Below are positions 62,533 through 64,000 of a stretch of DNA of 64,000 nucleotides, piece after piece. The notes below the pieces were generated by a model, which made no database searches, was not told the origin of the DNA, and saw only the letters and a list, made by a program, of their open reading frames with translations. The stretch's first letter is position 1. Each line of letters begins with the position of its first letter. The stretch is from NCBI GenBank assembly GCA_016124935.1, contig WGMS01000004.1, positions 62,001 to 126,000 on the forward strand, given 5' to 3'. The translations under genes and the position numbers were made by a program. This DNA comes from a bacterium (GTDB lineage Bacteria; Cyanobacteriota; Vampirovibrionia; Obscuribacterales; Obscuribacteraceae).

Positions 62533-62737
62533 GTCAGGACTAATATTCAACAATTCTATAAATGAGTAAATCAGCCAATTATCAAGGGTTTCAGGCGCCG
62601 CCCGGTCAGTCTGTCAAGCATATAATTTGTAAAATCTATGCTTTCGATAGACAATGAACATCCGTTTCTCATGCTAAGCAGCCTTTGAGCCGTTAGAACA
62701 GTTTGACCAGAATTTTAAAAGGCCAGGACAGATATTG

Positions 62738-63775
62738 ATGAATACGACCGAATCGGCAAGCACAGCCAGCCCCTCCGCCCCAGTTGACGAAGAAGCAATG
62801 GAAACCCTGGAAGTACTCGAAGAAGTCAAACCCGAGGTAAGCGATTTCTCTCCCGAGACCGAACTAAACCCGGATATTGAACCGGAAATTGAGCCGGAAA
62901 TCGAGCCGGAGATAGAGCTAGACTCGAAACTCGACCTTGATCAAGAAAAACGAGAAGACGAAAAAATCTACGAAGAAGAGGACGAAGGCGAGTTCCAGGA
63001 AAGACAATACCCCTACGATGTGCCCAGACCGGCACTCACCCTGGATGAAGCCTCCTATATTCTCGGCAAGTCTATTCGGTCCATAGAACGAAGCATCCAG
63101 GGCAAATGGGGTAACAGACTGCCAGAAGGATGGCAGGCCAGAAAAATGAAGATAGACGGAGAAAGCGAGTGGAGAATCATTCCACCGGCCGGTTTCCGCA
63201 TCAGACATACCGTATCGAAGTCCAGAATCGATTCGGACAGTAAAGAGCCGGAAAGCGGCGACACCGTAAATGGTACCAGTACCAGCCTGGCGGAAGTGGA
63301 AGACGCCATCGCGGTCGACGAGAGCCCGGAGACGACAAAACCGAATGAAGATTCAAAGGGCAACGGACTGAAACTGCCAGGCTTCAGTGTTGCCATCGAG
63401 AATTTCATCACCTCGGCCAGCCAGAAAGCCAAGAACGAACTCGCCAGAGCTACCAGCCTGAGCCAGGAGATGGACGCCGATATGGGTCATCCCACCATCG
63501 TCATCGACCGCTCCGACGATGTCGAGCGCTTGCTGCGAGAACTGGCCAATACTCGCAAAGAGCTCGCCGAAGAGCGCAGACTGCACATGGATGATCTCAG
63601 ATTACTCAACCAGATGCAGACCTCTATGCGCCTCCTCGAAGACCACGCCAGCCAGACAACCTGCTTGAAGGACGAACTGATTCAAGCCCGGGAAGCTTTG
63701 AAGATGCACAAAGAGCAGTATGAAACTTATCTGAAGCTGCCCTGGTGGAAAAAACTCTTCGTCAAGGCTCCCTAG
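62738..63775 (+). CDS. HTH-like and coiled-coil protein of unknown function
   Basis: 345 residues from ATG 62738 (TTG just before it is in frame). The acidic N-terminus has Glu-Pro-Glu-Ile repeats (PEIEPEIEPEIEL). Residues near 105-150 look like a MerR/excisionase-type helix-turn-helix (LTLDEASYILGKSIRSIERS). Then come an acidic linker, a coiled coil (LLRELANTRKELAEERRLHM) and a tail with PWWKKLFVKAP that could touch the membrane. The selenoprotein gene starts 30 bases downstream with no terminator between. Confidence 0.7.
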   Translation: MNTTESASTASPSAPVDEEAMETLEVLEEVKPEVSDFSPETELNPDIEPEIEPEIEPEIELDSKLDLDQEKREDEKIYEEEDEGEFQERQYPYDVPRPALTLDEASYILGKSIRSIERSIQGKWGNRLPEGWQARKMKIDGESEWRIIPPAGFRIRHTVSKSRIDSDSKEPESGDTVNGTSTSLAEVEDAIAVDESPETTKPNEDSKGNGLKLPGFSVAIENFITSASQKAKNELARATSLSQEMDADMGHPTIVIDRSDDVERLLRELANTRKELAEERRLHMDDLRLLNQMQTSMRLLEDHASQTTCLKDELIQAREALKMHKEQYETYLKLPWWKKLFVKAP

Positions 63776-63805: not shown

Positions 63806-64000
63806 GTGCCCGACCACAAGAAGAGATTCAAAATAACCTACTGCGGCGCCTGAGGCTACCGCCAGAGGGCAGTCAGGTTGGCTGCCGAGTTCGAAGAGAG
63901 GCTTTCAGAAGAGACTGAGCTGGTCAAATCTTCCGGCGGCATATTCGAGGTCGAAGACAAAGGCGAGTTGATATTCTCCAAAAGAGAACTGAAACGTTTT
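63806..64000 (+). CDS. selW: SelW-type selenoprotein (Rdx family), partial at window edge
   Basis: Reading from GTG 63806, with AAGGAGAT upstream, gives MPDHKKRFKITYCGA, then TGA at 63851-63853, then GYRQRAVRLAAEFEERLSEE and on to the window end without another stop. With TGA read as selenocysteine, residues 13-16 form C-G-A-U followed by G-Y, the redox motif of mammalian selenoprotein W. The later GGIFEVEDKGELIFSKRE also fits the thioredoxin-like Rdx fold. A SECIS-like hairpin follows the TGA. The family is thought to be a thiol redox protein; the selenocysteine machinery must be elsewhere in the genome. Confidence 0.88.
63868..63886 (+). promoter_or_regulatory. bacterial SECIS-like hairpin of selW
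   Basis: GGCAGTC (63868-63874) pairs with GGCTGCC (63880-63886), with one G-U pair, over loop AGGTT (63875-63879). The loop starts 21 bases after the TGA. E. coli fdhF has an apical AGGUC-type loop at a similar distance, where SelB binds. Confidence 0.75.

What the first reader, a model, noticed from the sequence alone, without database searches (positions are those of the whole stretch)
63806..64000. SelW-type selenoprotein with in-frame TGA and SECIS hairpin
The open frame is interrupted by one TGA exactly where selenoprotein W has its Sec (C-G-A-U-G-Y), it continues as a good Rdx protein afterwards, and a 7-bp hairpin with loop AGGTT lies 14 bases past the TGA. Standard gene callers would miss or truncate it. 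Seen directly: frame, motif and hairpin. Known: Rdx/SelW family and bacterial SECIS position. Inferred: selenocysteine use in this lineage, which I am not aware has been described.
Basis: partly seen in the sequence, partly recalled or inferred. Interest (0 to 1): 0.9.

Follow-up and report, generated by a model that had tools for sequence, protein, structure and literature searches.

The report
Selenocysteine SelW in non-photosynthetic cyanobacterial relatives
A small redox protein in an uncultured, non-photosynthetic relative of cyanobacteria very probably reads one stop codon as the rare amino acid selenocysteine; the protein type is well known, but a review says cyanobacteria do not use selenocysteine.

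Summary
The observation and its interpretation both hold. Window 63806-64000 is the first 65 codons of a 115-codon Rdx/SelW gene that runs past the window edge. The motif is YCGAUGY, with in-frame TGA at 63851-63853. A 7-bp hairpin (one U·G, loop AGGTT) starts 14 bases after the TGA. The hairpin alone is not beyond chance (z = -0.48); comparison decides it. Of 56 Rdx hits in 289 genomes of the class, all in the window's own family, 39 have TGA at this codon (36 of 38 genomes), 15 Cys, 2 neither. TGA copies keep the hairpin: 94.6% of cells paired, 25 double-changed cells against 9.1 in shuffles. Its codons are frozen. Cys copies lack it. The genome has selA, selB, selC, selD. TGA-SelW occurs in 24 of 27 family genomes with selA, 0 of 9 without. 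The family includes Candidatus Obscuribacter. The kind, a bacterial SelW-like selenoprotein, is well known; the lineage is the new part, though a 2022 paper notes one selenocysteine protein in a melainabacterium. A second candidate (AhpD-like, CFYU) lies elsewhere in the genome.

The parts
63806..64000 (+). SelW/Rdx gene, first 65 of 115 codons (GTG start); the rest lies outside the window, to a TAG at what would be window 64151-64153
   Evidence: Pfam Rdx 65 bits, TIGR02174 56.8 bits
63793..63798 (+). AAGGAG, likely ribosome-binding site, 7 bases before the GTG
   Evidence: sequence; inference
63842..63853 (+). CGAU redox motif (TGC GGC GCC TGA)
63851..63853 (+). in-frame TGA, read as selenocysteine (Sec16)
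   Evidence: TGA at the same codon in 39 of 56 family Rdx hits, 36 of 38 genomes; selA, selB, selC, selD in the genome
63868..63886 (+). bacterial SECIS hairpin: stem 63868-63874 / 63880-63886, loop AGGTT 63875-63879
   Evidence: 37 distinct sequences, 94.6% of cells paired against 87.7% in shuffles; 51.4% in 15 Cys copies
62735..63775 (+). upstream neighbour, 346-aa protein of no clear family, ends 30 bases before SelW; possible same operon
   Evidence: no Pfam or NCBIfam match over cut-off

Best explanation
The feature is a gene for a selenoprotein W-like (Rdx) thiol oxidoreductase. UGA codon 16 is decoded as selenocysteine by SelB, GTP and Sec-tRNA-Sec, which a SECIS hairpin 14 bases downstream brings to the ribosome. 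The product is a thioredoxin-like protein with a CxxU (Cys13-Sec16) redox centre in the loop between strand 1 and helix 1. It probably reduces or shuttles electrons to thiol or peroxide partners through a selenenylsulfide. Shown here: frame, family, codon conservation, SECIS covariation, presence of the four sel genes, co-occurrence. Inferred: actual selenocysteine insertion, redox activity and partners.
For: (1) Rdx/SelW match over curated cut-offs; the best solved relatives by sequence and fold are SelW/MIEN1-type proteins; the model has mean pLDDT 89.8 and a strand, CxxU loop, helix arrangement (computed with Cys in place of Sec). (2) TGA at CxxU in 39 of 56 Rdx hits, in 36 of the 38 genomes with a hit, out of 289 searched. 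(3) SECIS: 25 cells with both sides changed against 9.1 in shuffles, 0 of 500 shuffles as high; sliding the partner by 1-3 columns drops pairing to 14.7-63.7%. (4) Frozen codons in the hairpin, over all 39 TGA genes: where the residue is Arg it is AGG in 21 of 21, against 12 of 122 elsewhere in the same genes; Ser is AGT in 17 of 17 against 19 of 313; Val is GTC in 33 of 33 against 49 of 201 (near-identical genes counted apart). (5) The 15 Cys copies show no stem. (6) selA, selB, selC, selD in the genome. (7) In the 36 family genomes G000-G035, TGA-SelW is in 24 of 27 with selA and 0 of 9 without. (8) Of 73 SelW loci found in named genomes 35 were read, 3 of them family genomes already counted: 35 of 35 have TGA at CxxU, mostly followed by a similar hairpin-like stretch (by eye). 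(9) TGA is an ordinary stop here: it ends 5 of 23 ATG frames of 300 or more codons in the window, and cmk, right after SelW, ends in TGA.
Against: The hairpin of this one sequence is not more stable than shuffles. The double changes lie in two of seven pairs; three never vary; 9 of 37 sequences break the outermost pair and 4 of 37 the fourth; the number of pairs with double changes (2) is no higher than in shuffles (414 of 500 as high). Co-occurrence counts ignore relatedness. Of the 24 TGA-SelW genomes, two lack SelB over cut-off (G023, G029), one selC (G031) and one selD (G014) (draft assemblies). No protein or expression data were seen.
Confidence: 0.96

Rival explanations
1. The TGA is a real stop: the gene is a pseudogene or a sequencing error in a Cys-type SelW.
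For: TGA is one base from TGC and TGT; Cys copies exist in relatives. Single-sequence hairpin stability is ordinary.
Against: TGA at the same codon in 39 genes of 36 genomes, with open frames after it; frozen hairpin codons and a covarying stem.
Confidence: 0.02
2. UGA is read through as a standard amino acid (Trp or Cys by near-cognate tRNA, or code reassignment) and not as selenocysteine.
For: The frame is open; read-through by itself does not name the residue.
Against: TGA ends 5 of 23 long frames of the window and the next gene cmk. tRNA-Sec, SelA, SelB and SelD are present. A conserved hairpin follows.
Confidence: 0.02
3. The hairpin is simply the DNA of a conserved helix (AVRLAA) and not an RNA signal.
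For: The protein stretch AV(R/S)LAA is well conserved, which limits the DNA.
Against: The pair at columns 21/33, both third codon positions, occurs as UA, CG, UG, GU, AU and GC. Codon choice is frozen in the hairpin and not elsewhere in the same genes. Cys copies do not keep it.
Confidence: 0.02

Closest known systems
SelW-like bacterial selenoprotein family (Rdx, PF10262; TIGR02174 CXXU_selWTH)
   Same: Rdx fold, CxxU motif, TGA at the same codon, hairpin right after it. SelW-like and SelD are reported as the most widespread marine selenoproteins (PMC2398784, passages).
   Different: Lineage. The long family copies in alignment A1 carry a C-terminal tail with a (S/P)FxxW motif.
NF041051 SelTWH_Campy (seleno)protein
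   Same: Best NCBIfam E-value, 79.2 bits over the Rdx core.
   Different: Below its curated cut-off of 88 bits.
Selenium use in Cyanobacteria
   Same: selD (Prochlorococcus, PMC5029168) and the selenouridine trait (PMC1794560) were known; passages seen.
   Different: PMC1794560 (2006) did not detect Sec decoding in Cyanobacteria and the review PMC9312934 (2022) says they appear to lack it (passages); PMC9529120 (2022) notes one Sec protein in a melainabacterium (passages).
MIEN1/C17orf37 (PDB 2ljk) and mouse SelW (2npb)
   Same: Eukaryotic Rdx relatives by sequence and fold.
   Different: MIEN1 has Cys at the position of Sec16.

Membership tests
SelW-like selenoprotein (Rdx) | match to the Rdx/SelW profile over the curated cut-off | tested here: met
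   PF10262 65 bits against 22.6; TIGR02174 56.8 against 34.2
SelW-like selenoprotein (Rdx) | CxxU motif with in-frame TGA | tested here: met
   CGAU, TGA at 63851-63853
SelW-like selenoprotein (Rdx) | thioredoxin-like Rdx fold | tested here: met
   model pLDDT 89.8, pTM 0.74; best PDB match 2fa8, SelW-related, TM 0.60 by query and 0.78 by target; Cys stood in for Sec
SelW-like selenoprotein (Rdx) | redox activity of the Cys-Sec pair | not testable with these tools
   needs the purified protein
NF041051 SelTWH_Campy | score over the curated cut-off | tested here: not met
   79.2 bits against 88; not filed there
bacterial SECIS element | hairpin close behind UGA with a G in the first two loop bases (rule recalled, not from a call) | tested here: met
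   stem starts 14 bases after the TGA; loop begins AG or GG in 35 of 35 distinct 42-mers
bacterial SECIS element | conserved pairing with compensatory changes | tested here: met
   absent in Cys copies
bacterial SECIS element | drives Sec insertion with SelB | not testable with these tools
   needs a reporter assay
Sec-decoding organism | selA, selB, selC, selD in the same genome | tested here: met

The most novel reading that the evidence does not exclude
Selenium supply tunes an essential gene. The SelW frame ends 8 bases before the ATG of cmk (cytidylate kinase), with no clear ribosome site of cmk's own by eye. If cmk is translated by ribosomes finishing SelW, failure to insert selenocysteine at codon 16 would lower cmk expression, making UGA16 plus SECIS a selenium-sensing switch. 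The Cys replacements at the same cmk-linked locus in other genomes of the family would then be escapes from that coupling.
Probability: 0.08. Interest if true: 0.75.

Novelty: new member of a known kind. Interest (0 to 1): 0.42.

Why it matters
It gives genomic evidence of selenocysteine decoding in a family of non-photosynthetic Cyanobacteriota, a phylum whose cyanobacteria are said to lack it (passages), and in at least one other class of the phylum. The cmk-linked locus shows Sec, Cys and neither at one chromosomal site, alongside presence or loss of the sel genes, which is a natural series for studying how selenoproteins are lost. Annotation that stops at TGA would miss or shorten these genes (inference; no gene caller was run).

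Tried and rejected
Single-sequence folding as evidence: rejected, z = -0.48. Formate dehydrogenase as another selenoprotein: the one Molybdop_Fe4S4 match in the genome (L207) has no TGA in the 628 codons held of its frame. SECIS model R1 on the whole genome (150 of 2504 first-look candidates scored): only the SelW site is significant (60.3 bits, E 7.6e-14); ten others have E 1.05 or more. Nine of the ten were looked at; one, L213, has TGA in a frame open on both sides, but its translation shows no Cys before the TGA and looks like no protein by eye (no family search made). This does not exclude selenoproteins with other hairpins: the AhpD-like candidate was not among the hits. Origin of the sel genes by transfer or descent: not tested, the single genome-contig scan being used on SelW; the SelW tree has too few columns (109) to place the deep branches. 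One search read 13 minus-strand loci on the wrong strand; corrected. A motif scan of L226-L230 found nothing because the motif was too narrow; repeated by position. Rows not used: of 73 loci, 35 were read, 32 entered the tree (three duplicates of family genomes left out), 38 were not read. The other-class genomes G289-G323 could not be named.

Full report
What is there. Window 63806-64000 holds the first 65 codons of a frame that starts at GTG (63806) behind AAGGAG and has TGA as codon 16. The window is G000:C12:62001-126000 of a genome of 4,395,705 bases, 89% complete; beyond the window the frame continues to a TAG, 115 codons in all. Read through, the protein is an Rdx/SelW family member: Pfam Rdx 65 bits against a cut-off of 22.6, TIGR02174 56.8 against 34.2; NF041051 reaches 79.2, below its cut-off of 88. 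The TGA sits at the fourth place of CxxU (CGAUGY). Eight bases after the TAG begins cmk (TIGR00017, 253.9 bits), whose own stop is TGA. TGA ends 5 of 23 ATG-started frames of at least 300 codons in the window, so it is an ordinary stop in this organism.

The hairpin. It is as described: 7 pairs with one U·G, loop AGGTT, 14 bases after the TGA. Folding that one sequence says little: 64 of 200 shuffles fold as well.

Comparison. Rdx was searched in 289 genomes of the class: 38 have a match, all in the window's own family. Of the 56 hits, 39 (in 36 genomes) have TGA at CxxU, 15 have Cys and 2 have neither. The 39 TGA genes (37 distinct over 51 bases) align without gaps and keep the stem in 94.6% of cells, against 87.7% (sd 1.0) in shuffles; 25 cells are changed on both sides, against 9.1. 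The pair at columns 21/33 occurs as UA, CG, UG, GU, AU and GC. Against this: two of seven pairs carry all double changes, a number that shuffles reach in 414 of 500; three pairs never vary; 9 of 37 sequences break the outermost pair, 4 of 37 the 21/33 pair and 1 the 22/32 pair. RNAalifold finds the same stem unprompted, with one more pair inside. The same columns in the 15 Cys genes pair in 51.4%, no better than shuffles, and RNAalifold predicts no structure there. Codon choice is frozen in the hairpin of the TGA genes: Arg AGG 21 of 21, Ser AGT 17 of 17, Val GTC 33 of 33, where elsewhere in the same genes AGG is 12 of 122, AGT 19 of 313 and GTC 49 of 201 (near-identical genes counted apart). 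I read this as selection on RNA over and above the protein.

The machinery. The same genome has tRNA-Sec (74.1 bits, gathering score 47, anticodon TCA), SelA (518.1 bits), SelB (694 aa with a SelB winged-helix match; 270.9 bits with its pieces joined, cut-off 242.25) and SelD (372.2 bits). Among the 36 family genomes G000-G035, TGA-SelW is in 24 of 27 with selA and 0 of 9 without; for selB 22 of 25 and 2 of 11; for selC 23 of 27 and 1 of 9; for selD 23 of 29 and 1 of 7 (tables made). Relatedness is not corrected for, and many assemblies are drafts. Two of the selA-less genomes have SelW without Sec: Cys in G013, neither in G008. G008 keeps selD.

Which organism. So the family belongs to Obscuribacterales, Cyanobacteriota (rank names partly recalled). 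selA (E at most 1e-30) occurs in 8 of 386 genomes drawn from the phylum: G000 and seven outside its class. Five of those seven also have a TGA-SelW followed by a similar stretch (by eye); two have no Rdx match. Photosystem I genes were found in none of the seven, nor in G000 or G027.

History. In the tree (93 rows, 109 columns, weakly resolved deep down) a group of 36 rows (support 94/95, not starred) holds all 21 SelW genes with a cmk motif downstream. Its Cys members lie in a group of 12 with two Sec genes and the two 'neither' genes (92/87, not starred), within otherwise Sec genes. The cmk P-loop motif lies within 700 bases downstream in 21 of 56 loci: 11 Sec, 8 Cys, 2 neither (a motif scan, some loci being short). 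The plainest reading is Sec to Cys replacement at one site, with loss of the second redox residue in two genomes; parsimony counts cannot tell gain from loss by themselves. A short SelW clade (9 rows, 98/92) keeps Sec: of its nine genomes, seven have a Cys cmk-linked copy, one a 'neither' copy (G128), and in one no second copy was found (G029). A third clade (7 rows, 100/100) is all Cys.

Other selenoproteins. The only other candidate found is an AhpD-like gene (G000:C22, L225:1396-1959) with CFYU: TIGR01926 115.3 bits (cut-off 81.8); NF041238, an alkylhydroperoxidase-related (seleno)protein family, 67.8, below its cut-off of 175. CGCAG-AGTTT-CTGCG follows its TGA (by eye). Most known selenoprotein families were not searched.

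Mechanism. SelB with Sec-tRNA-Sec, held by the hairpin, decodes UGA16. The product has a thioredoxin-like fold (pLDDT 89.8; the best 22 PDB matches are Rdx-family chains) with Cys13-Sec16 at the active loop. Insertion, activity and partners are inferred from the known family.

Literature, passages only. PMC1794560: Sec decoding not detected among Cyanobacteria. PMC9312934: Cyanobacteria appear to lack it. PMC5029168: its two mentions of cyanobacteria concern orphan SelD in Prochlorococcus. PMC2398784: SelW-like among the most widespread marine selenoproteins. PMC9529120: one Sec protein in a melainabacterium. PMC5330540: no mention of cyanobacteria or melainabacteria. PMC12013277: searched, no passage. 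Searches for selenoprotein with Melainabacteria or Obscuribacterales, and selenocysteine with Obscuribacter, Melainabacteria or Sericytochromatia, listed no paper that by title and abstract start is on this subject, beyond PMC9529120; the other listed papers were not opened. The library holds open-licence papers only.

Verdict. Very probably a genuine selenoprotein gene, correctly recognised from raw sequence. The kind is known; the lineage is new to the literature seen, apart from one passing mention.

Noticed in passing
L225:1396-1959 (G000:C22), TGA at L225:1624: AhpD-like gene with CFYU (TGA), a second selenoprotein candidate of the genome, with a possible 5-bp hairpin and loop AGTTT 11 bases after the TGA.
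   Followed up: partly
G289, G293, G299, G305, G307 (L226-L230): selA together with TGA-SelW in genomes of the phylum outside the class, with no photosystem I match; two further selA genomes (G317, G323) have no Rdx match.
   Followed up: partly
L095 (G128), L096 (G008): cmk-linked SelW orthologues that have lost the second redox residue (YCTSLIDC, YCANSN); G008 also lacks selA, selB and selC but keeps selD.
   Followed up: partly
L036:1210-3294 (own SelB): The SelB G-domain stretch from GHVDHGK to DVPGH varies from 54 to 93 residues among the 27 SelB loci read; the window genome has the longest, with an insert before DVPGH.
   Followed up: partly
G020: Two tRNA-Sec matches over the gathering score (70.2 and 54.9 bits) and two TGA-SelW genes, one with CGVU-N, in one genome.
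   Followed up: no
   Followed up: no
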